Below are positions 10,394 through 20,091 of a DNA stretch of 64,000 bases, piece after piece. Every line of letters begins with the position of its first letter. Position 1 is the first letter of the stretch. Position numbers and translations under genes: made by a program. This DNA comes from Methylorubrum sp. B1-46. GTDB taxonomy: Bacteria > Pseudomonadota > Alphaproteobacteria > Rhizobiales > Beijerinckiaceae. The DNA is taken from NCBI RefSeq assembly GCF_021117295.1, contig NZ_CP088247.1, positions 4,913,001-4,977,000 on the forward strand, given 5' to 3'. The notes beneath the pieces were generated by a model. The model saw only the letters and a program-made list of their open reading frames with translations. It had not been told where the DNA came from and did no database searches.

Positions 10394-11998
10394 TCAGTAC
10401 ACGTCGGCCTGATAACGCCCGGCCTTCTTCAGGGCGGCGAGATAGGCCACCGCCTCGTCGGGGTTCTTGCCGCCGTGCTGCGCGGCGACGTCGATGATCG
10501 CGCGCTCCACGTCCTTGGCCATGCGCTTGGCATCGCCGCAGACGTAGAAATGGGCGCCGCCCTCCAGCCACTTCCACAGCTCGGCGCCGTTCTCGCGCAT
10601 CCGGTCCTGCACGTAGGTCTTCTCGGTGCCATCGCGCGACCAGGCCAGTGAGAGGCGGGTCAGCACCTTCTCGTCCTTCAGGCCGTTCAGCTCGTCCTTG
10701 TAGAAGAAGTCGGTCGCCTGCCGCTGGTGGCCGTAGAACAGCCAGTTGCGGCCGGGCGCCTTCGTTGCCGCGCGCTCGCGCAGGAAGGAGCGGAACGGCG
10801 CGACACCGGTGCCGGGGCCGCACATGATCACGTCTTTGGAGGCATCCTGCGGCAGGGCGAAGCCGTGCGCCTTCTGCAGGTAGATGCGGACCTTGGTCTG
10901 CTCGGGCAGACGCTCGCCGAGATGCGTCGAGGCGACGCCCAGGCGCAGCCGCGAGCGATGGTTGTAGCGCACCGCATCGACGGTCAGCGAGACGCGGCCG
11001 GCATCCATCTTCGGCGAGGACGAGATCGAGTAGAGCCGCGGCTGCAACTCGTCGAGCGCCTCCAGGAAGACCTCGGCATCGGGCCGCGCACCGGGGAACT
11101 TGTGGAGCGCGCCGAGCACGTCGAGATAGGCGGCATCGCCGTCCGGATCCTCGCCGGCCGCCAGCGCCTGCGCCTTCTTGCGCGCCTCGCCCGAGGTCAG
11201 CAGCGACAGGAGCTGGTAGAGGTTGTCCGGCGCCGAACCCAATGAGTAGTCGGTGAGCAACCGGTCGCGCAGGGTCTTGCCGCCGATCTTCCGCTCGGGC
11301 CGCGTACCGAGTTCGGCGATCACCGCATCGACCAGGGCCGGAGCGTTGGCCGGGAACAGGCCGAGAGAGTCGCCGGCTTCATACTGGATCGGCGTATCCC
11401 TCAGGTCGATCTCGATGTGCCAAGTCTCCTTCTCGCCGCCCGGCGCGTTGAGGCGCGTGCGGGAGAGGAAGGTCGCCTCGACCGGGTTTTCGCGGCAATA
11501 GCCCAGCGGCCCGAGTTCCGGCTCCTTCTTCGGTGTGTCGCCTTCCGCTTTCTTCGGGGCCGCCGGGCCGCCCGAGGCGCCGAACTCCTCCTCCAGCTTC
11601 TTCAGCATCCGCAGCGTTTCCTTGCCGCCGGGCTGGCAGAGGTTCAGCCGCTCCTCGCTCTTCAAAAAGATCGCGTTGGCGTAGTCGGCGCAGTTGTAGC
11701 CGCACTGGCCGCAATCCTGCTGGGCCATGGCGGCCATCAGTTTCTGCGGCTCCGAGCGATCCTTGGCGATCGCCATGCGATCGTCGATCGGCATCGACGG
11801 GTCGTGCCAGGGCGCGTCGTCGTTGTCGGCGAGCTTGGGGCCCGTCGAGGACGCCTCGCCCGGCGCCAGAGCGGTGGCGCCCTCGACCGCCGGGCCGAGC
11901 AGCGCGGCGAAGTAGCCGGACAGCCAGGAGCGCTGGTCGGCGTTGAAGGGGGCGCTCTCGGGGATGAGAACGAGGGGGGGCGCGACGTGCTGGGTCAT
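10394..11998 (-). CDS. CysJ-like NADPH flavoprotein reductase with N-terminal Fe-S domain
   Basis: A 534-residue reductase. The C-terminal two thirds is the FAD/NAD(P)H diflavin-reductase core of sulfite reductase alpha subunits: RLYSISSSPKM (FAD), CGPGTGVAPFRSFL and FYGHQRQATDF (nucleotide), ending in AGRYQADVY. There is no flavodoxin domain. Instead the N-terminal part holds CGQCGYNCADYANAI followed by LNLCQPGG, a four-Cys Fe-S motif like that of RnfB/FeS (PF04060) domains. It is the last gene of the nitrate operon and its ATG overlaps the nirA stop (ATGA). Electron supply to NirA or to an unlinked nitrate reductase is inferred. Confidence 0.82.
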   Translation of the reverse strand: MTQHVAPPLVLIPESAPFNADQRSWLSGYFAALLGPAVEGATALAPGEASSTGPKLADNDDAPWHDPSMPIDDRMAIAKDRSEPQKLMAAMAQQDCGQCGYNCADYANAIFLKSEERLNLCQPGGKETLRMLKKLEEEFGASGGPAAPKKAEGDTPKKEPELGPLGYCRENPVEATFLSRTRLNAPGGEKETWHIEIDLRDTPIQYEAGDSLGLFPANAPALVDAVIAELGTRPERKIGGKTLRDRLLTDYSLGSAPDNLYQLLSLLTSGEARKKAQALAAGEDPDGDAAYLDVLGALHKFPGARPDAEVFLEALDELQPRLYSISSSPKMDAGRVSLTVDAVRYNHRSRLRLGVASTHLGERLPEQTKVRIYLQKAHGFALPQDASKDVIMCGPGTGVAPFRSFLRERAATKAPGRNWLFYGHQRQATDFFYKDELNGLKDEKVLTRLSLAWSRDGTEKTYVQDRMRENGAELWKWLEGGAHFYVCGDAKRMAKDVERAIIDVAAQHGGKNPDEAVAYLAALKKAGRYQADVY

Positions 11999-13788
11999 GC
12001 GGCGGCCTTGAGGGCGGGTTGTTCTTCGGCAGCATCGCGCAGGGCTTCTGGGCCGGTGCGCGCGGTGAAGGCCTGGAAGCTCTCCTCCGGGCCCTGGCGG
12101 CGGGCGAGATAGGTGGTGAGCAGGGCCTCGACGCGCGAGGGCGCGTCCTCGGCCTTCACGGCCTTCCAGATCTCGGTGCCGATCTTCGGGTTCTCGGCAA
12201 AGCCGCCGCCGACGACGATGTCGTAGCCCTCGACGGTGTCGCCCTCCTCCGAGACGACGACCTTGGCGCCGATCAGGCCGATATCGCCGATATAGTGCTG
12301 GGCGCAGCTATGGTGGCAGCCGGTGAGGTGGACGTTCACCGGCACGTCGAGCGCCGGCACGGTCTTCTCGACGTGATCGGCGATGATCATCGCGTGGCCC
12401 TTGGTGTCGGAGGCCGCGAACTTGCAGCCGCGGGAACCGGTGCAGGCGATGAGCCCGGAGCGGATGCCGGCGGCCTTGACCGTCAGGCCGAGCGCTTCGA
12501 CGCGGGCCTCGACCTCGGCGACCTTGGCGTCCGGCACACCCGAGAAGATGAAGTTCTGCCAGACCGTCATGCGAATCTGGCCGTCGCCGCACTCGGCCGC
12601 GACCTTGGCCAGCCCCCGCATCTGGTCGGTGGTCATCTTGCCCACGGGCAGCACCACGCCGACCCAGTTCAGGCCGGGCTGGACCTGCTTGTGCACGCCC
12701 ACATGGCTGAAGCGGTCGGTCGGACGGCGGGGCGCGACATAGGCGGGATCGACCCGGTCGAGCTTGCGCCCGAGTTTTTCTTCGACGGCGGCGATGTACT
12801 TGTCGAAGCCCCAGGCATCGAGGACGTACTTCATCCGGGCCTTGTTGCGGTTAGTCCGGTCGCCGTTCTCGATGAAGACGCGGATGATCGCGTCGGCCAC
12901 GCGGTTGCAGTCCTCGGGCTTGAGGATGATCCCGGTGTCGCGGGCCAGATCCTTGTGGCCGGAGATGCCGCCGAGCACGAGGCGCATCCAGACGCCCGGC
13001 GCGACGGCGGCGCCCTCCAGCACTTGGATCGCTTGGAAGCCGATGTCGTTGGTCTCCTCCAGGGCCGGCATCACGCCGCCGCCGTCGAACGAGACGTTGA
13101 ACTTGCGCGGCAGGCCGTAGAGCGAGCGGTCGTTCAGGATCCAGTTGTGCCAGGCCTTGGTGAGGGGCCGCGTGTCCAAGAGTTCCTGCGCGTCGATGCC
13201 GGCGGCGGGCGAGCCGGTGACGTTGCGGATGTTGTCGGCGCCCGCGCCCTGCGCGGTCAGGCCGAGATCGGTCAGCCCGTCGAGGAAGGGCTGCGCGTGC
13301 TCCGGGTTGATCTCGCGCACCTGCAGGCCCGCGCGGGTGGTGACGTGGCTATAGGCGCCGCCATGAGCGTCCGCGAGGTCGGCGATGCCGGCCAACTGCC
13401 AGTGGTTCAGGATACCGTTGGGCACCCGGATCCGGCACATATAGGAGACTTGGTTCGGCGCGACCCAGAACATGCCGTGGTAGCGCCAGCGGAAATTGTC
13501 CTCGGGCTTCGGAGCCTTGCCGGTGGCGGCCTCCGCCTTCAGGCGATTATGGCCGTCGAAGGGGTTCTCGGCGCGCTTCCACTTCTCCTGGTCGCACAGC
13601 TTGCCGCCCGCCTTCACGGTGCGCTCCTGCGCCTTGATGTGGATCGCATCCGGGCCCGTGGGCTCCGCGGGCGGGGCGGAAGCGGCCGCTTGCCCGATCG
13701 CGAGGCCGCCGGTCATCCGGGCGGCGGCGATGCCCGAGGCGAAGCCTTCGAGATACCGCGTCTGCTCGGCGTTGAATTCGTCTGCCAT
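11995..13788 (-). CDS. nirA: Ferredoxin-type nitrite reductase (nitrite/sulfite reductase family)
   Basis: A 597-residue sirohaem/[4Fe-4S] reductase, expected to reduce nitrite to ammonium with six electrons. The cofactor cysteines are visible as ACTGSRGCKF (C-x5-C) and TGCHHSCAQHY (C-x3-C). The two ferredoxin-like repeats of the family surround them. Sulfite reduction is the alternative, but its position between nitrate transport genes and a reductase favours nitrite. GAGG precedes the ATG at 13788; the longer open frame would overlap the upstream gene. Confidence 0.88.
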   Translation of the reverse strand: MADEFNAEQTRYLEGFASGIAAARMTGGLAIGQAAASAPPAEPTGPDAIHIKAQERTVKAGGKLCDQEKWKRAENPFDGHNRLKAEAATGKAPKPEDNFRWRYHGMFWVAPNQVSYMCRIRVPNGILNHWQLAGIADLADAHGGAYSHVTTRAGLQVREINPEHAQPFLDGLTDLGLTAQGAGADNIRNVTGSPAAGIDAQELLDTRPLTKAWHNWILNDRSLYGLPRKFNVSFDGGGVMPALEETNDIGFQAIQVLEGAAVAPGVWMRLVLGGISGHKDLARDTGIILKPEDCNRVADAIIRVFIENGDRTNRNKARMKYVLDAWGFDKYIAAVEEKLGRKLDRVDPAYVAPRRPTDRFSHVGVHKQVQPGLNWVGVVLPVGKMTTDQMRGLAKVAAECGDGQIRMTVWQNFIFSGVPDAKVAEVEARVEALGLTVKAAGIRSGLIACTGSRGCKFAASDTKGHAMIIADHVEKTVPALDVPVNVHLTGCHHSCAQHYIGDIGLIGAKVVVSEEGDTVEGYDIVVGGGFAENPKIGTEIWKAVKAEDAPSRVEALLTTYLARRQGPEESFQAFTARTGPEALRDAAEEQPALKAAA

Positions 13789-13799
13789 CGCTGCCTCAC

Positions 13800-15020
13800 T
13801 CACGCTGCGAGGGTTTTCGGGGCCGGGCCGAACATCAGGTCGTCCCGGTCGTCGGGGGAAAGCGGCGCGCCGGAGCGGATCAGCTCCTTGCAGCGCGCCT
13901 GCTCCGCGATATCGCCGACGAAGACCGCTCCTGCGAGGCGGTCGTCGACGATGATCAGCTTGCGGTAGAGCCCGGCGGCGGCGTCGTGCATCACGACGGC
14001 CTCGGCGCCCTCGGGCGTATCGACCAGCCCGGCGGAGAAGACCGGCAGGCCCGAGACTTTGAGGCTGGTGGCCAGCGACGTGCCGGGATAGGCCGCCGCC
14101 TCGCCGAGAAGAACGCGCGACAGCACCTCGGCCTGCTCGTAGGCGGGCTCGACCAGGCCGTAGACGACACCCCGGTGCTCGGCGCATTCGCCGAGCGCGT
14201 GGATCGCCGGGTCGGAGGTGGTCATCCGGTCGTCCACCGTGATGCCGCGCCCGCAGGTCAGCCCGCAGCCCTGCGCCAGCGCCGTCGAGGCGCGGATGCC
14301 CACCGACATCACCACGAGATCGGCCGGAATCACCGTGCCGTCCTTCAGCACCAACCGCTCGACCCGTCCGTCGCCCTCGATCGCCGCCGTGTCGGCGCAC
14401 AGCATCACCCGGACCCCGCGGGCTTCCATCGCCGCGCGCACGAGACGGGCGGCGGTGTGGTCGAGCTGACGCTCCATCACCCGGTCCATGACGTGGACCA
14501 GCGTGGTGTCGACGCCAAGCCGGGCGAGCCCGACCGCGGCCTCCAGGCCCAGAAGCCCGCCGCCGATCACGACCGCTTTGGCGTGCTCCACCGCCGCCTT
14601 GCGGATCGCCGCCACGTCGGCGAAATCGCGAAACGTCAGGACGCCCGGCAGGTCGATGCCCGGCAGCGGCAGACGGATCGGCAGCGAGCCCACCGCCAGC
14701 ACCAGCTTGTCGTAGGGCAGGACATGCGTCTGCCCGACCATCGCGATGCGGTTGACCCGGTCGATCTCGGTCACCGGCGCGCCGGTGACGAGGCGGATGC
14801 CGTGTGCCTCGTACCAGGAGAGCGGGCGGAAGCCGCAGGCCGCCTCGTCCACCTCACCGCCGAGCAGCGAGGAGAGCAGCACCCGGTTGTAGGCCGCCAC
14901 CGGCTCGGCGCCGACCACGGTCACGTCGTAGCGATCCGGCGCCCGCTCCGTCAGCCGCTCGAGGAAGCGGAGCGAGGCCATGCCGTTGCCGGCGACGACG
15001 AGTCTGTCCTTAACGCTCAT
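13800..15020 (-). CDS. NirB N-terminal-like FAD/NAD(P)-dependent oxidoreductase
   Basis: A 406-residue stand-alone pyridine-nucleotide-disulfide-type flavoprotein, resembling the N-terminal half of NirB and the NasB-type electron donors. Seen are the FAD motif VVAGNGMASLRFLE, AYNRVLLSSLL, the NAD motif VVIGGGLLGLEAAVGLA and the second FAD contact ALGECAEHRG. There is no BFD [2Fe-2S] or sirohaem domain. It could pass electrons from NAD(P)H to nitrate reductase or NirA. A GTG at 15041 is possible, but the ATG at 15020 with an upstream GGGGGA is preferred. It lies 11 bases before nirA. Confidence 0.82.
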   Translation of the reverse strand: MSVKDRLVVAGNGMASLRFLERLTERAPDRYDVTVVGAEPVAAYNRVLLSSLLGGEVDEAACGFRPLSWYEAHGIRLVTGAPVTEIDRVNRIAMVGQTHVLPYDKLVLAVGSLPIRLPLPGIDLPGVLTFRDFADVAAIRKAAVEHAKAVVIGGGLLGLEAAVGLARLGVDTTLVHVMDRVMERQLDHTAARLVRAAMEARGVRVMLCADTAAIEGDGRVERLVLKDGTVIPADLVVMSVGIRASTALAQGCGLTCGRGITVDDRMTTSDPAIHALGECAEHRGVVYGLVEPAYEQAEVLSRVLLGEAAAYPGTSLATSLKVSGLPVFSAGLVDTPEGAEAVVMHDAAAGLYRKLIIVDDRLAGAVFVGDIAEQARCKELIRSGAPLSPDDRDDLMFGPAPKTLAA

Positions 15021-15045
15021 GAACCCGTGATCCCCCTTCACGAAT

Positions 15046-15840
15046 TCAGGCCGCGAGCGCCGGCTTGGCGTGGCGGGCGTAGAGGAATTCCAGCACCGCG
15101 GCGCGGGCGTGGACGTAGGTCGCGTCCTCCACGAGATCGAGCCGGCGGCGGGGCCGGGCCAGCGGCACGGGCAGGATCTCGCCGATGGTGGCCGAGGGCC
15201 CGTTCGTCATCATCACGATGCGGTCGGAGAGCAGCACCGCCTCGTCCACGTCGTGGGTGATCATGATGACGGTGTTTCTGAGCCGCGTCTGGATCTCCAT
15301 GAGCTGGTCCTGAAGGTGGGCGCGGGTCAGCGCGTCGAGCGCCCCGAACGGCTCGTCCATCAGCAGGACGGTCGGCTCCATGGCCAGCGCGCGGGCGATG
15401 CCGACGCGCTGCTTCATGCCGCCCGAGATCTCCGCCGGGCGTTTGTCGGCGGCGTGCATCATGTTCACCAGCGCGAGGTTGTGCTCGATCCACTGGGCGC
15501 GTTCGGTGCGGGTCTTCTTGCCCTTGAGCACCTTGTCGACGGCCAGCGCCACGTTCTCGCGCACCGTCAGCCAGGGCAGGAGCGAGTGGTTCTGGAACAC
15601 CACGGCGCGGTCGGGGCCGGGGGCGTTCACTTCCTTGCCGTCGAGCAGCACGCCGCCGGTGGAGGCCTTGAGCAGGCCGGCGACGATGTTGAGCACCGTC
15701 GACTTGCCGCAGCCCGAATGCCCGATGATCGAGACGAACTCGCCCTTGGCGATGTCGAGGTTCACGTCGCGCAGGACCTCAGAGGTGTTAGCCCCGCGGC
15801 GGAAGGTGATGCCGACCTGTGAGAGAGTGAGGTGGGCCAT
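15046..15840 (-). CDS. nrtD: Nitrate/nitrite ABC transporter ATP-binding protein
   Basis: A 264-residue ATPase of the nitrate/sulfonate/taurine importer group. Walker A is GHSGCGKSTVLNIVAG, the Q-loop is FQNHSLLPWLTVREN, the signature is ISGGMKQRVGIARALA and Walker B is VLLMDEPFGALDALTR, with the switch His in ITHDVDEA. It energises uptake through the NrtB pore using substrate from NrtA. GGGAG lies ahead of the ATG. Unlike cyanobacterial NrtC it has no fused binding-protein domain. Confidence 0.9.
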   Translation of the reverse strand: MAHLTLSQVGITFRRGANTSEVLRDVNLDIAKGEFVSIIGHSGCGKSTVLNIVAGLLKASTGGVLLDGKEVNAPGPDRAVVFQNHSLLPWLTVRENVALAVDKVLKGKKTRTERAQWIEHNLALVNMMHAADKRPAEISGGMKQRVGIARALAMEPTVLLMDEPFGALDALTRAHLQDQLMEIQTRLRNTVIMITHDVDEAVLLSDRIVMMTNGPSATIGEILPVPLARPRRRLDLVEDATYVHARAAVLEFLYARHAKPALAA

Positions 15841-15853
15841 GTTTGTTGCTCCC

Positions 15854-16711
15854 TCAGCTTGCGGAGGTGCCGCGGGTCACCAGCACGCCGACGCCGGCGA
15901 CCAGCCGGTCGAGGACGAAGCCGATGAGGCCGACATAGACGAGGGCGACGATGATCTCGGAGATGTGGGAGGAGTTCCACGCATCCCAGATGAAGAAGCC
16001 GATGCCGACGCCGCCGATCAGCATCTCGGCCGCGACAATAGCGAGCCAGGACAGGCCGACACCGATGCGAAGACCGGTGAAGATGTAGGGTGCCGCCGAG
16101 GGCAGCATGATCTTGTAGAAGAACTCGATCGGGTTCAGCCGGATGACGGCGGCGACGTTGCGGTAGTCCTGCGGAATGTTGCGGATGCCGACCGCCGTGT
16201 TGATGATGATCGGCCAGATCGAGGTGATGAAGATCACGAAGATCGCCGAGGGCTGGCCGTCGCGGAAGGCGGCGAGCGAGAGCGGGAGCCACGCCAGCGG
16301 CGGGATCGTGCGCAGCACCTGGAAGATCGGGTCGAGCCCGCGCATCGCCCATTCGGACTGGCCGACGAGCGTGCCGAGCAGGACGCCGGCCACGACTGCC
16401 AGCGAGAAGCCCAGCGCCACGCGCTTCAGGCTCGCGGCGATATGCCAGAACAGGCCCTTGTCGGTGCCGCCGTTGTCGTAGAATGGATCGACGATGATGT
16501 CCCAGGCCTCCGCCACCACCCGCGAGGGCGGCGGCAGGCCGGCGGTGGGGGAGGAGCACAGCACCTCCCATAGGAGCAGGAAGCCCGCCAGGACGACGAG
16601 CGGCGGCAGGACGCGGGCGGCGACGCCACGCAAGCCGGCCAGGGTGACGAAGGGCGCGCGGGCCTTGGCGGCGCGTTCGCGGGTGGCCGCGAGGGTTGCT
16701 CCGGTAGCCAT
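15854..16711 (-). CDS. nrtB: Nitrate ABC transporter permease
   Basis: A 285-residue inner-membrane permease of the BPD_transp_1 type with about six helices. The ATPase-coupling EAA loop lies around AAVIRLNPIEFFYKIMLPSA (about residue 190). The ATG at 16711 shares its A with the nrtA stop (TGATG), which fixes the start; a GTG immediately upstream would add one residue. It forms the pore for nitrate/nitrite imported by the NrtA/NrtD system. Confidence 0.9.
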   Translation of the reverse strand: MATGATLAATRERAAKARAPFVTLAGLRGVAARVLPPLVVLAGFLLLWEVLCSSPTAGLPPPSRVVAEAWDIIVDPFYDNGGTDKGLFWHIAASLKRVALGFSLAVVAGVLLGTLVGQSEWAMRGLDPIFQVLRTIPPLAWLPLSLAAFRDGQPSAIFVIFITSIWPIIINTAVGIRNIPQDYRNVAAVIRLNPIEFFYKIMLPSAAPYIFTGLRIGVGLSWLAIVAAEMLIGGVGIGFFIWDAWNSSHISEIIVALVYVGLIGFVLDRLVAGVGVLVTRGTSAS

Positions 16712-18003
16712 CACGCGACCTTCTTGATGCCGAGGCTGGCGAGGTAGGCGGCGGGGTTATCGGGATCGAAGACCTTGCCGTCGAACAGCGTCTCGACGCC
16801 GCGCGAGGTGGAGGTCGGGATCGCGGAGACGCCGAGGGCCTTGGCAGCCTCGCGCCAGAGATCCTCGCGGTTGACCTTGCCGATCAGCGCCTTGGTGTCG
16901 GTCTGCGCGTCGAACTTGCCCCAGCGGATGTCCTCGGTGAGGAACCAGAGGTCGTGCGACTGGTACGGGTAGGAGGCGTTGTCGGCCCAGAATTTCATGG
17001 TGAAGGGGCTGTTCTCGACGACGCGGCCGGTGCCGTAATCGAACTTGCCCTTCATCCGGTCGACGACGTCAGCCACCGGCACGTTGATCCACTGCCGCTT
17101 GGCCACGATCGCCGCCATCTCGTCGCGGTTCTCGGGCTTCTCACACCATTGCTGGGCCTCCATCACCGCCATCAGCAGGGCTTTCGCCGCGTTGGGGTAC
17201 TTGTCGACCCAGGCCGCACGCATGGCGAAGGCCTTCTCCGGGTGGTCCTTCCAGAGTTCGCCGGTGGTGATGGCGGTATAGCCGATGCCCTGATGGATGA
17301 GCTGCTCGTTCCACGGCTCGCAGACGCAGAAGCAGTCCATCGTGCCGACCTTCATGTTCGCCACCATCTGAGGCGGGGGCACGACGATGGTCTCGATGTC
17401 CTTGTCGGGGTCGATGCCGCCGGCGGCGAGCCAGTAGCGGATCCAGAGATCGTGGGTGCCGCCGGGGAAGGTCATGGCCGCCTTCACCGCCTTGCCCGAC
17501 GCCTTCTTGGCCTCCAGCACCGCTTTGAACGGCTTGGTGTCCAGCCCGATCTTGTGGTCGATATGCTCCTTGGCGATCGAGATGCACTGACCGTTCAGGT
17601 TGAGCCGGGCCATGATGTACATCGGCACGGGCACGTTGTTCTGCGTCACCCGGCCCGCCGAAATCAGGTAGGGCATCGGGCTGAGGATGTGGGCGCCGTC
17701 GATACCGTTGCCCTCGGAGCCGAGCACGAGGTTGTCGCGGGTCGTGCCCCAGCTCGCCTGCTTCAGCACCTCTGTCTCGGGCAGTCCGTATTTGGCGAAG
17801 ATGCCCTTCTCCTTGGCCACGAAGAGCGGCGCCGCGTCGGTGAGCGCGATGAAGCCGAGCTTGGCGCCCTTCACCTCGGGCCCCGCGCCCTGCGCGAAGG
17901 CACCGACCGGCAGGGCGGCGCGGGCGGCACCCGCCAGGGCGAGGGCGGCCGCCGCTCCCTTGAGGACGCCGCGACGGGTCGTGTTGCCGTGATCGATGCT
18001 CAT
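16711..18003 (-). CDS. nrtA: Nitrate-binding periplasmic protein, Tat-exported
   Basis: A 430-residue substrate-binding protein of the NrtA/CmpA family. The N-terminus NTTRRGVLKGAAAALALAG is a twin-arginine signal, cleaved near AFAQ. The body carries family features such as GFIALTDAAPLFVAKEKGIF, DGAHILSPMPYLIS and DCFCVCEPWNEQLIHQGIGY, where nitrate ligands lie in known structures. GGAGCGAAGAG precedes the ATG at 18003. The 160-base leader ahead of it holds a sigma-54-like promoter, an ANTAR element and a terminator, so expression of this gene and everything downstream should depend on nitrogen limitation and on nitrate/nitrite. Confidence 0.92.
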   Translation of the reverse strand: MSIDHGNTTRRGVLKGAAAALALAGAARAALPVGAFAQGAGPEVKGAKLGFIALTDAAPLFVAKEKGIFAKYGLPETEVLKQASWGTTRDNLVLGSEGNGIDGAHILSPMPYLISAGRVTQNNVPVPMYIMARLNLNGQCISIAKEHIDHKIGLDTKPFKAVLEAKKASGKAVKAAMTFPGGTHDLWIRYWLAAGGIDPDKDIETIVVPPPQMVANMKVGTMDCFCVCEPWNEQLIHQGIGYTAITTGELWKDHPEKAFAMRAAWVDKYPNAAKALLMAVMEAQQWCEKPENRDEMAAIVAKRQWINVPVADVVDRMKGKFDYGTGRVVENSPFTMKFWADNASYPYQSHDLWFLTEDIRWGKFDAQTDTKALIGKVNREDLWREAAKALGVSAIPTSTSRGVETLFDGKVFDPDNPAAYLASLGIKKVA

Positions 18004-18036
18004 CCGCTCTTCGCTCCGGTGCGCTGTCTGCACATG

Positions 18037-18109
18037 AAAAAAGCCGCTGTCCGGGGATCGCCTGCGCGATCGACATTCGTCGCGTGCGGGCATTCCGGAT
18101 CAGCGGCTT
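18037..18109 (-). terminator. Intrinsic terminator in the nrtA leader (attenuator)
   Basis: On the minus strand AAGCCGCTG-A-TCCGG (18109-18095) pairs with CCGGACAGCGGCTT (18054-18041) with one bulged A, followed directly by a run of U (18042-18037). The enclosed 40 bases form two smaller hairpins. It lies 33 bases before the nrtA start. Its 5' arm overlaps the 3' half of the second ANTAR hairpin, so the two structures cannot coexist. Confidence 0.85.
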
Positions 18110-18145
18110 TGCTGACGTTTGAGGCCCGTCACCGTTGGCGAGCCC
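18100..18145 (-). promoter_or_regulatory. Two-hairpin ANTAR (NasT) antitermination element
   Basis: On the minus strand the first hairpin is GGGCUCGCC, loop AACGGU, GACGGGCCU (18145-18122, one C-A mismatch and wobbles). After a six-base linker comes UCAGC, loop AAAGCC, GCUGA (18115-18100). Both have six-base loops with A at position 1 and G at position 4, the rule known for ANTAR-protein RNA targets. The second hairpin takes bases that the terminator needs. NasT, encoded just upstream, is the obvious ligand. Confidence 0.85.
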
Positions 18146-18158
18146 GTGCGAACGGCTT

Positions 18159-18175
18159 TGCAGGAGCCGTGCCAA
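18159..18175 (-). promoter_or_regulatory. Sigma-54 (-24/-12) promoter of the nrtA operon
   Basis: The minus strand reads TTGGCACGGCTCCTGCA. The GG and GC doublets have exactly ten bases between them, as in the consensus TGGCACG-N4-TTGC. The predicted start is about 12 bases downstream, near 18148, only a few bases before the first ANTAR hairpin. The RNA would therefore begin almost exactly with the regulatory element. NtrC control is inferred; no clear NtrC site was assigned. Confidence 0.75.
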
Positions 18176-18490: not shown

Positions 18491-19507
18491 TCACCCGCCG
18501 ATGGCCGCCTCGAGGAGGTCCGGTCGGTAGAGCGCGGCCGCTCGGTCCGCCGCGTCGCCGCCGGGCGCGACCTGCCCGCAGGCGATCATCTGCGTGACCA
18601 GCCAGCGGGCATGGGCCGGGTCCGGCCGATGGGTCGCGGCGTCGAGGCGCAGATAGGCCGGGTTCGCACGCTCGCGCCCGCCGGCATCCACGATCAGCGC
18701 ACCGGCGAGCGTGCGGGCGATGAGCGCGGCATCCGAATCGAGCTCGGCGCGCGCGGCGAGCAGGGTGCTCAGGGCGACGCGGTTGGCCGGATCGGCGCAC
18801 CACAGCCCGGCCCGATGGACGGCCCGCACCAGGGGAGGCATGAAGTCCGCTCCCTCGGCAGGCAGGGCCAGCACCTTTTCCGGGCAATCGGGTGCGATCT
18901 CGCAGCCGAGCGCCGCGATCCGGCCGAGGCCGGCAGCGACCGCGACGCTGTTCCAGGGCGCGCCGACGCAGAAGCCGTCGATGCGTCCGCGCCCGAGCGC
19001 ATCCACCGTATCGGGCGGCGGAACCACGACGAGGCGCACCGCGGCGTCGAGATCGAGCCCGCCGAGGCCCGCGAACAGGCGAAGCTGGTAGGAATGGCTG
19101 GAGAAGGGATGCACGGTGCCGATGGTGAGCGGACGTCCCTCCCCGGCCCGCGTGCGGGCGACCCGGGCGAAGCTCGCCGCCACGTCGGTGAGACCGTCGC
19201 TCTCGGGCGCCATCGCCGCCCAGAGCGCGTTCGAGACGGTCACCGCATTGCCGTTGAGACCGAGCGCCATCGGCACGCTGATGTCTGCCTGCGGCCCCGA
19301 GAGCCCCAATGCGCTGGCGATGGCGAGCGGCCCGAGCATGTGCGCGGCGTCGAGATGGCCGAGCGCCAGCCGGTCGCGCAGGGTTGCCCAGGACGGCTCG
19401 CGCGACAGCGCGATCTCGAGCCCCTCGGCCCGCGCGAAGCCCATCTCGGCCGCCGCGATCACGGGGGCAGCATCGGTGAGCGGAACGTATCCGAGCCTGA
19501 GTCTCAT
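18491..19507 (-). CDS. nasS: NasS-like nitrate/nitrite sensor protein (soluble NrtA homologue)
   Basis: A 338-residue protein related to NrtA/CmpA substrate-binding proteins but starting directly with MRLRLGYVPLTDAAPVIAA and carrying no signal peptide, so it is cytoplasmic. Family stretches include HLDAAHMLGPLAIAS, TVHPFSSHSYQLRLF and IDGFCVGAPWNSVAV. Known NasS proteins hold NasT inactive and release it when nitrate or nitrite binds. The ATG overlaps the nasT stop (ATGA), as expected for a stoichiometric pair. The longer open frame through nasT is spurious. Confidence 0.88.
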   Translation of the reverse strand: MRLRLGYVPLTDAAPVIAAAEMGFARAEGLEIALSREPSWATLRDRLALGHLDAAHMLGPLAIASALGLSGPQADISVPMALGLNGNAVTVSNALWAAMAPESDGLTDVAASFARVARTRAGEGRPLTIGTVHPFSSHSYQLRLFAGLGGLDLDAAVRLVVVPPPDTVDALGRGRIDGFCVGAPWNSVAVAAGLGRIAALGCEIAPDCPEKVLALPAEGADFMPPLVRAVHRAGLWCADPANRVALSTLLAARAELDSDAALIARTLAGALIVDAGGRERANPAYLRLDAATHRPDPAHARWLVTQMIACGQVAPGGDAADRAAALYRPDLLEAAIGG

Positions 19508-20091
19508 CCGAGCAGGTCCGCCGCGGTAACGATGGCGCGGGCGATGTCGACGATCTTGCGCTTCTCGTTCATCGCCTGCCGGCGCAGGAGCTTGTAGGCC
19601 TCGTCCTCGCTCATCCCCTTGCGCGTCATCAGGATGCCCTTGGCCCGCTCGATCAGCTTGCGGTCGGCGAGTTCGGAGCGGGCCTCGTCGAGTTCGCGCT
19701 GGAGCCGCGCGAAGGCGTTGAAGCGAAGGATGGCGATGTCGAGGATCGAGCGGATCCGCTCGGTCCGCAGGCCATCGACCACGTAGGCCGAGATGCCCGC
19801 ATCGACCGCCGCCTGCATCATGGTCTGGTCCGAGCGGTCCACGAACATCGCCACCGGCCGCTCCGCCTGCCGGGACAGGCCCGACATCTGCTCCAGCACG
19901 TCGCGGCTCGGGCTCTCCAGATGCACCACGATCACGTCGGGCTTGAGGCCCGCCACCCGCGCCTGGAGATCGGGCCCGTCGGGCAGGACGACGACCCTGT
20001 CGACGCCCGAGGCCCGCAGGCCCTCCTCCAGGATGGCCGCGCGGGCGGGGCTCGGGTCGATCACGGCGACGGTGAGGCTGGTCTCGGTCAT
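19504..20091 (-). CDS. nasT: NasT-like ANTAR-domain antiterminator
   Basis: A 195-residue response-regulator-like protein. Residues 1-125 form a receiver-like domain (LTVAVIDPSPARAAILEEGL, then DVIVVHLESPS) in which the usual phospho-acceptor position in VIVVHLES is not a clear Asp, so control is probably by NasS rather than phosphorylation. Residues about 135-190 are an ANTAR RNA-binding domain: LIERAKGILMTRKGMSEDEA and YKLLRRQAMNEKRKIVDIA. The target is proposed to be the element at 18100-18145. It is the first gene of the nasTS pair. Confidence 0.9.
   Translation of the reverse strand: MTETSLTVAVIDPSPARAAILEEGLRASGVDRVVVLPDGPDLQARVAGLKPDVIVVHLESPSRDVLEQMSGLSRQAERPVAMFVDRSDQTMMQAAVDAGISAYVVDGLRTERIRSILDIAILRFNAFARLQRELDEARSELADRKLIERAKGILMTRKGMSEDEAYKLLRRQAMNEKRKIVDIARAIVTAADLLG

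What the first reader, a model, noticed from the sequence alone, without database searches (positions are those of the whole stretch)
18037..18175. Complete nitrate-responsive attenuator: sigma-54 promoter, twin ANTAR hairpins and terminator in one leader
Seen: a -24/-12 motif with exact spacing, whose predicted start lies a few bases before a first hexaloop hairpin (loop AACGGU). Six bases later comes a second (loop AAAGCC). Both have A at loop position 1 and G at position 4. The second hairpin uses bases that also form the 5' arm of a U-tailed terminator 33 bases before nrtA. Known: NasT-type ANTAR proteins bind such twin hairpins and prevent termination (Klebsiella nasF, NasT/NasS). Inferred: NasS frees NasT on nitrate/nitrite, and nitrogen limitation drives the promoter. 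The three layers fit in under 140 bases.
Basis: partly seen in the sequence, partly recalled or inferred. Interest (0 to 1): 0.78.

Follow-up and report, generated by a model that had tools for sequence, protein, structure and literature searches.

The report
Nitrate-controlled leader before nitrate transport genes
A short control region in a Methylobacterium-type bacterium very probably lets the cell read its nitrate-uptake genes only when nitrogen is short and nitrate is present; the device is of a known kind, but its relatives show two unusual versions worth testing.

Summary
On the minus strand, between nasTS and nrtABC-nirBN-nirA, lie an exact -24/-12 site (18175-18159), a predicted start at 18148, hexaloop hairpins P1 (loop AACGGU) and P2 (loop AAAGCC), and a U-tailed terminator whose 5' arm is P2's loop and 3' strand. 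The genome shows one ANTAR gene (nasT), one rpoN and one strong copy of this leader. A covariance model found the leader in 110 of 111 genomes of the genus; base changes support both hairpins and the terminator. It is a new member of a known kind.

Following it through the genus gave more. Of 123 leaders, all keep the sigma-54 site, P1 A1/G4 and P2 G4. But 43 of 45 leaders before nirBN carry G, not A, at P2 loop position 1. And in 13 genomes with two leaders, 11 nrtABC leaders show no U-tailed terminator by my test, while promoter and hairpins are more alike than nrtA's four-fold sites. Two open questions become testable: what A1 is for, and what NasT does without a terminator.

The parts
18159..18175 (-). 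sigma-54 (-24/-12) promoter TTGGCACGGCTCCTGCA; predicted +1 at 18148
   Evidence: a site with at least 9 of 13 consensus bases, at a near-fixed distance from P1, in 123 of 123 genus leaders
18122..18145 (-). P1 hexaloop hairpin, loop AACGGU (18136-18131), begins at about +4
18099..18116 (-). P2 (antiterminator) hexaloop hairpin, loop AAAGCC (18110-18105)
18037..18110 (-). intrinsic terminator: 5' arm 18110-18095 (P2 loop and 3' strand), 3' arm 18054-18040, U-tract 18042-18037; excludes P2
   Evidence: (z -5.7)
16711..18003 (-). nrtA, nitrate transporter substrate-binding protein (start 18003). Named by context and relatives; NCBIfam gives only a sub-cut-off SsuA-family match
15854..16714 (-). 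nrtB, nitrate transporter permease (TIGR01183, above cut-off)
15046..15840 (-). nrtC/D-type nitrate transporter ATPase (TIGR01184, above cut-off)
13800..15041 (-). nirBN: NirB N-terminal-like FAD reductase (TIGR02374, below its cut-off; covers the N-terminal half of the model)
11995..13794 (-). NirA family protein (PRK09567, above cut-off); start inferred
18491..19522 (-). nasS: NrtA-like sensor (29% identical to NrtA); start inferred
   Evidence: no NCBIfam match
19504..20091 (-). nasT: receiver-like + ANTAR RNA-binding antiterminator, the only ANTAR match in the genome

Best explanation
A nitrate-responsive antitermination leader. RNA polymerase with sigma-54 starts at about 18148, so the transcript begins almost with hairpin P1. 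Without nitrate, NasT is held by NasS; the P2 sequence is captured by the downstream arm and transcription stops at the U-tract before nrtA. With nitrate or nitrite, NasS lets NasT go; NasT binds the P1 and P2 loops, keeps P2 folded, the terminator cannot form and nrtABC-nirBN-nirA is transcribed. Shown by sequence: promoter match, hairpins, terminator, their mutual exclusion, conservation, gene context. Inferred from NasS-NasT, NasR and EutV work elsewhere: nitrate release of NasT, its binding here, readthrough. Inferred only: an NtrC-type activator under nitrogen limitation.
For: Exact -24/-12 site; terminator z -5.7; P1/P2 covariation; P2 loop/arm pairing with the terminator 3' arm: 14 distinct arm pairs from 42 class i leaders, 139 of 140 cells paired, with changes such as loop position 3 from A-U to G-C (the arm's place was chosen by best pairing near T-rich sequence, which favours pairing); P2 arm-to-downstream duplex, window z -4.7, 0 of 200 shuffles as good, class i median z -3.0 with 33 of 43 at most 5 of 200; one strong leader in the own genome, E 4.5e-11, next 0.107 (150 of 14124 candidates scored); leader in 110 of 111 genus genomes; one ANTAR gene. 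NasT matches PDB chains 1s8n, 6wsh/6ww6 (EutV, name recalled), 4akk ('nitrate regulatory protein') and 1qo0 (AmiR). Paper passages seen: PMC3795266 (nitrate splits NasS-NasT; NasT binds nasA leader RNA), PMC3369931 (twin hexaloops, A1/G4), PMC7496416 (52% against 5% readthrough with NasR with and without nitrate).
Against: P1+P2 fold alone is only modestly better than shuffles, and the fold of the whole stretch to the ATG does not form P1. P1 has a C.A mismatch beside its closing pair; in 12 of 45 distinct leaders that position is not a standard pair. 10 of 43 class i leaders do not beat 195 of 200 shuffles for the P2 arm duplex. No NtrC site in the window above chance. Rfam silent. No expression, start-site or binding data.
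Confidence: 0.88

Rival explanations
1. The stem with the U-tract is simply the end-of-operon terminator of nasTS, and P1/P2 have no regulatory role.
For: It lies downstream of nasTS and folds very stably.
Against: A sigma-54 site lies between nasS and the stem, and such a site is kept at a near-fixed distance from P1 in 123 of 123 leaders; P1/P2 covary; in 13 genomes a second twin-hairpin leader stands before nrtA, besides the one before nirBN.
Confidence: 0.04
2. NasT binding to P1/P2 acts mainly on something other than the intrinsic terminator, such as translation, RNA stability or Rho, and the terminator is secondary.
For: In 11 of 13 two-leader genomes the nrtA leader keeps P1/P2 without a U-tailed terminator that passes my test; [quoted passage not shown]
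Against: In class i, 33 of 43 leaders, the window included, have a P2 arm that pairs downstream better than at least 195 of 200 shuffles, and 110 of 123 genus leaders pass the terminator test.
Confidence: 0.06
3. The terminator-less nrtA leaders of relatives are decaying relics (a rival to the novel case, not to the reading of the window).
For: 11 of the 13 lie apart from the nasTS-nirBN leader; some keep remnants of the arm; one such nrtA (G018) looks frameshifted.
Against: In 10 named class iii leaders mean identity of the P1-P2 core is 0.83 against 0.46 downstream and 0.71 at four-fold nrtA sites; on the nrtA tree the class needs 3 changes, at least 2 forced by well-supported branches, so it is not one clade.
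Confidence: 0.3

Closest known systems
NasS-NasT with the nasA leader (Paracoccus denitrificans; passages of PMC3795266 and PMC5424462)
   Same: nasT-nasS gene order, NasT binding a hairpin leader just downstream, nitrate/nitrite as signal
   Different: There the structural operon begins with nasA and the NtrC-binding sequence reported is at the nasT promoter; here a sigma-54 site sits directly on the leader and the first genes are nrtABC
NasR and the nasF leader (Klebsiella oxytoca; passages of PMC7496416 and PMC3369936)
   Same: P1/P2 hexaloops with A1 and G4, P2 overlapping an intrinsic terminator, nitrate control; sigma-54 promoter (recalled)
   Different: NasR is a single NIT-ANTAR protein; here sensor (NasS) and antiterminator (NasT) are separate
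NasT at nosR, nirA and other targets (Bradyrhizobium diazoefficiens; passages of PMC6759348)
   Same: Alphaproteobacterial NasT antitermination
   Different: Several targets reported there; here one strong leader in the genome. Of 28 nrtA loci outside Methylobacteriaceae, 26 gave no twin hairpin in the 420 bases scanned and two gave low-grade hits that I dropped
EutV and the eut leaders (passages of PMC3369931 and PMC8934654)
   Same: Dual hexaloop motif; the RNA-binding Tyr and Met fall on Tyr and Met of NasT by alignment
   Different: Ethanolamine signal through phosphorylation; the eut loops are reported to keep A1 and G4, whereas 43 of 45 nirBN leaders of this genus have G1 in P2

Membership tests
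ANTAR-target RNA (dual hexaloop) | two neighbouring hairpins with hexanucleotide loops and a short linker | tested here: met
   linker 5 nt in the window; but, where P1 does not form in the longest fold
ANTAR-target RNA (dual hexaloop) | A1 and G4 in both loops | tested here: met
   window: AACGGU and AAAGCC. In the genus G4 123 of 123 in both loops, P1 A1 123 of 123, P2 A1 80 of 123
ANTAR-target RNA (dual hexaloop) | P2 overlaps a mutually exclusive intrinsic terminator | tested here: met
   window. Passed by 110 of 123 genus leaders, failed by 13
ANTAR-target RNA (dual hexaloop) | bound by an ANTAR protein | not testable with these tools
   only NasT was found as a possible partner in the genome
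NasS-NasT system | ANTAR protein with receiver-like N-terminus | tested here: met
   Pfam ANTAR above cut-off; receiver-like part by sub-cut-off matches and by solved relatives
NasS-NasT system | adjacent NrtA-like sensor | tested here: met
   29% identity to NrtA over 346 residues
NasS-NasT system | nitrate/nitrite releases NasT | not testable with these tools
   needs protein work
sigma-54 promoter | -24 GG and -12 GC with exact spacing and consensus (consensus recalled) | tested here: met
   12 of 13 consensus positions; rpoN present
sigma-54 promoter | upstream activator site (not strictly defining) | tested here: inconclusive
   only an NtrC palindrome was sought, in 350 nt; none above shuffles in the window
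Rfam families | match at gathering threshold | tested here: not met
   only a tRNA in the window

The most novel reading that the evidence does not exclude
In Methylobacterium the NasT leader has split into functional types. Solo nrtABC leaders use promoter-proximal twin hairpins to bind NasT without any intrinsic terminator, so NasT there acts by a mode not described for NasT in the papers I saw (Rho, 5'-end stability or translation). And nirBN leaders work with G1 in the P2 loop, showing that A1 is dispensable in the antiterminator hairpin, or that NasT has adapted to it.
Probability: 0.35. Interest if true: 0.6.

Novelty: new member of a known kind. Interest (0 to 1): 0.4.

Why it matters
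For the window: it gives a compact, complete and well-conserved NasT leader in a genetically tractable group of methylotrophs, apparently the only strong one in the genome. For the field: the A1 rule was set by mutants and SELEX, yet the EutV-RNA crystal structure shows no specific contact to A1, and its authors propose that A1 may prevent pseudotriloops through cross-loop pairing (passage of PMC8934654). Forty-three natural leaders carry a G1 that could pair across the loop, so the proposal can be tested with natural RNAs. The terminator-less nrtA leaders offer a test of whether NasT does more than antitermination.

Tried and rejected
NtrC site: palindrome scan of 77 leaders, nothing in the window; 6 of 77 had a site reached by at most 2 of 30 shuffles, at differing places. 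Rut-like C-richness of terminator-less leaders: C minus G over 65 nt, median 8 against 4 in class i and -2 in class ii, but 11.6% of background windows reach 8; inconclusive. Alternative pairing of linker plus P2 5' arm, or of P1, with downstream sequence in 13 class iii leaders: no trend (0 of 13 and 1 of 13 with at most 5 of 200 shuffles as good). A consensus fold of 12 class iii leaders (L049 left out) showed no alternative that I found convincing. The Methylorubrum start-site paper PMC9320726 has none of the words sigma 54, rpoN, riboswitch, attenuat or nitrogen in its main text; its supplements were not available to me. PMC12797532's two 'nasT' hits were an author name. Fourteen weaker model hits in the own genome (E 0.107 to 4.95): seven came as loci L113-L119 (three of these places were fetched again as L194-L196); none lies by a close nrt, nas or nir gene, but L116's partial hit falls in a transporter gene 31% identical to nrtB, beside one 44% identical to nrtC; not pursued. 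Eight weak hits in relatives (L186-L193) were dropped before the counts. L253-L256 were fetched but not analysed. The single fixed NasT difference between class i and ii (residue 157) may be mere phylogeny.

Full report
WHAT IS THERE. The window lies in a 5.5 Mb genome; its NrtA is 99% identical to that of Methylorubrum aminovorans. On the minus strand the order is nasT, nasS, leader, nrtA, nrtB, nrtC, a NirB N-terminal-like reductase (called nirBN here), a NirA family protein and a sulfite-reductase-type flavoprotein. Two refinements: the linker is five bases if P1's terminal G-U pair is counted, and P1 has a C.A mismatch next to its closing pair.

IS IT MORE THAN CHANCE. The -24/-12 site is exact and is the only site within two mismatches in 64 kb. 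The terminator folds far better than shuffles (z -5.7, 0 of 200). P1+P2 alone do not stand out strongly (z -1.97, 10 of 200). The stretch 18148-18035 folds with P1 and the terminator (z -3.2, 2 of 200), but the longer stretch to the ATG (z -2.2, 5 of 200) pairs P1's bases with the region before nrtA. So I turned to relatives.

RELATIVES WITH NAMES. A scan of named genomes with NrtA gave 80 loci (212 relatives were found, the best 80 kept). By their titles 52 are Methylobacteriaceae and 28 are not. A motif scan upstream of nrtA found twin hexaloop hairpins in 51 of the 52; the last, L032, was missed by the scan and read by eye. Among the 28 others, two low-grade hits (L090, L094), without a usable sigma-54 site, were dropped. 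With the window this makes 53 leaders, 45 of them distinct over the hairpins. Named pairs counted on that alignment exceed all 500 shuffles for cells paired, cells changed on both sides and covariation score; pairs with a double change (7 against 5.0) were reached by 27 and further pair types by 7 of 500 shuffles; slid registers score far lower. Shuffles do not remove relatedness.

THE SWITCH. The terminator 5' arm is P2's loop and 3' strand. In 42 class i leaders there are 14 distinct arm pairs; 139 of their 140 cells are standard pairs, including A-U, G-U and G-C at loop position 3. The arm's place was picked by best pairing, which favours this result. The P2 arm pairs downstream better than shuffled sequence: window z -4.7; class i median z -3.0, 33 of 43 leaders with at most 5 of 200 shuffles as good; class ii median z -1.9, 8 of 24 (its class i includes L098, which failed the terminator test).

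WHO ACTS ON IT. The search found one ANTAR protein in the genome, NasT, and one sigma-54. NasT matches the PDB chains 1s8n (a putative antiterminator), 6wsh, 4akk (nitrate regulatory protein) and 1qo0 (AmiR). I take 6wsh/6ww6 to be EutV from memory; its Tyr164 and Met172 (numbers of PMC8934654) fall on Tyr and Met of NasT if the paper's numbers are two lower than the chain's, which is my inference. A model of the leader finds one strong copy in the genome, E 4.5e-11; the next is 0.107 (150 of 14124 first-look candidates scored). So nrtABC-nirBN-nirA is likely the only NasT target of this form here.

GENUS-WIDE. The model finds the leader in 110 of 111 genomes of the genus and 109 of 109 of good quality; the miss is 70% complete. 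I fetched and classed all 123 places listed at E up to 1e-4. In 123 of 123 a sigma-54 site with at least 9 of 13 consensus bases stands upstream. Its C(-12) lies 20 nt before the first base of the P1 loop in 93, 24 nt in 17, and 19 or 21-23 nt in the other 13. As sigma-54 starts about 12 nt after that C (recalled), the transcript would begin within a few bases of P1. P1 has A1 and G4 in 123 of 123, P2 has G4 in 123 of 123.

THREE CLASSES. (i) The window type: nasTS, leader, nrtABC. (ii) nasTS, leader, nirBN-nirA without nrtABC between. (iii) A second leader before a separate nrtABC in genomes that also have class ii. Of 45 leaders before nirBN all pass the terminator test, and 43 have G at P2 loop position 1 (41 GAGGCC, 2 GAGGCT). 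The two with A1 (L206, L216) look like class i leaders; L206 is followed by what I read as an NrtA-like start, so its nrtA may be broken or short. Of 78 leaders before nrtA, 65 pass and 13 fail. The test asks for a T-rich tail 45-94 nt after the P2 loop and at least 6 of the last 8 stem bases paired with P2's arm; under a looser rule two of the 13 (L153, L166) showed weak matches. Thirteen genomes have two leaders, each with one nirBN leader (G1, with terminator) and one nrtA leader; the latter fails in 11 of 13, and the two that pass (L182, L248) have weak or distant U-tracts. Among the other 65 nrtA leaders 2 fail: L178, from a fragmented genome in which no ANTAR gene was found, and L203, with a degenerate U-tract. 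These counts do not correct for shared ancestry. In 25 genomes with class ii or iii leaders searched with NrtA, 16 have no match above about 41% identity and 9 have one at 81-90%.

ARE THE TERMINATOR-LESS LEADERS ALIVE. In ten named class iii leaders (L049 included, which has a weak terminator) mean pairwise identity is 0.83 for the sigma-54 site, 0.83 for P1-P2, 0.46 from P2 to the ATG, and 0.71 at four-fold sites of nrtA. Across 13 such leaders the P2 arm mostly does not pair downstream better than shuffles (median z -0.6; 2 of 13 with at most 5 of 200). On the nrtA tree the class needs three changes, at least two forced by well-supported branches, and none of 200 bootstrap trees needs only one. 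So a NasT site seems kept without a terminator, and not in a single clade; whether the state is old or was gained more than once I cannot tell. Against this: remnants of the arm can be seen in some, one nrtA of this class seems frameshifted (G018), and the identity gap may partly reflect indels. A C-rich, Rho-like stretch was not convincing and no alternative fold was found. The mechanism there is open.

THE G1 LEADERS. PMC3369931 (passages) reports A1 and G4 as needed in both loops; PMC7496416 (passages) found the same preference by SELEX. PMC8934654 (passages) found no specific contact to A1 and proposed that A1 may prevent pseudotriloops. GAGGCC could pair G1 with C5 or C6. Between NasT of 13 class i and 11 class ii genomes the only fixed difference is residue 157, Arg/Ala against Met/Leu, in the ANTAR domain (the 24 NasT loci). 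Class ii may be one clade, so this is a lead only.

WHAT IS KNOWN. NasS-NasT, twin hexaloops, P2-terminator exclusion and the link to nitrate genes are published (passages). PMC12316311 (passages) predicts sigma-54 promoters for nitrate transporter and ANTAR genes in Pseudomonadota. Searches combining Methylobacterium or Methylorubrum with NasT, ANTAR, hexaloop, nitrate assimilation or start sites, and NasT with Rho-dependent termination, listed no paper whose title or abstract start deals with these leaders in this genus; several lists were capped (for example 20 of 169), and subscription papers are mostly not in that library.

VERDICT. Real, correctly read, and a new member of a known kind. 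The genus survey adds two variants of moderate interest outside the window.

Noticed in passing
18003-18093 (-): The nrtA frame stays open upstream to an ATG at 18093, through the terminator; a mechanical caller could place the start there. The start at 18003 fits the leader better.
   Followed up: partly
L151, L154-L156, L159-L165, L167-L169, L171-L174, L177, L179, L180, L183-L185 and 19 more: P2 loop GAGGCC/GAGGCT: G instead of A at position 1 in 43 of 45 leaders before nirBN.
   Followed up: yes
L153, L157, L158, L166, L170, L175, L176, L178, L203, L228, L234, L236, L242: nrtA leaders with sigma-54 site and twin hairpins but no U-tailed terminator passing the test.
   Followed up: yes
L158 (G018:C1:4049706-4050973): nrtA matches in two overlapping pieces, so it may be frameshifted (or a sequencing error).
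   Followed up: no
L188 2001-2038 (-): A genome of another family has a leader-like stretch with the same P2 sequence and a U-tailed stem between a nasS-like and a nirBN-like gene; P1 is shorter and no sigma-54 site was found.
   Followed up: no
L253-L256: Weaker matches of the leader model in other genera of the family (E 9e-6 to 5e-4), fetched but not analysed.
   Followed up: no
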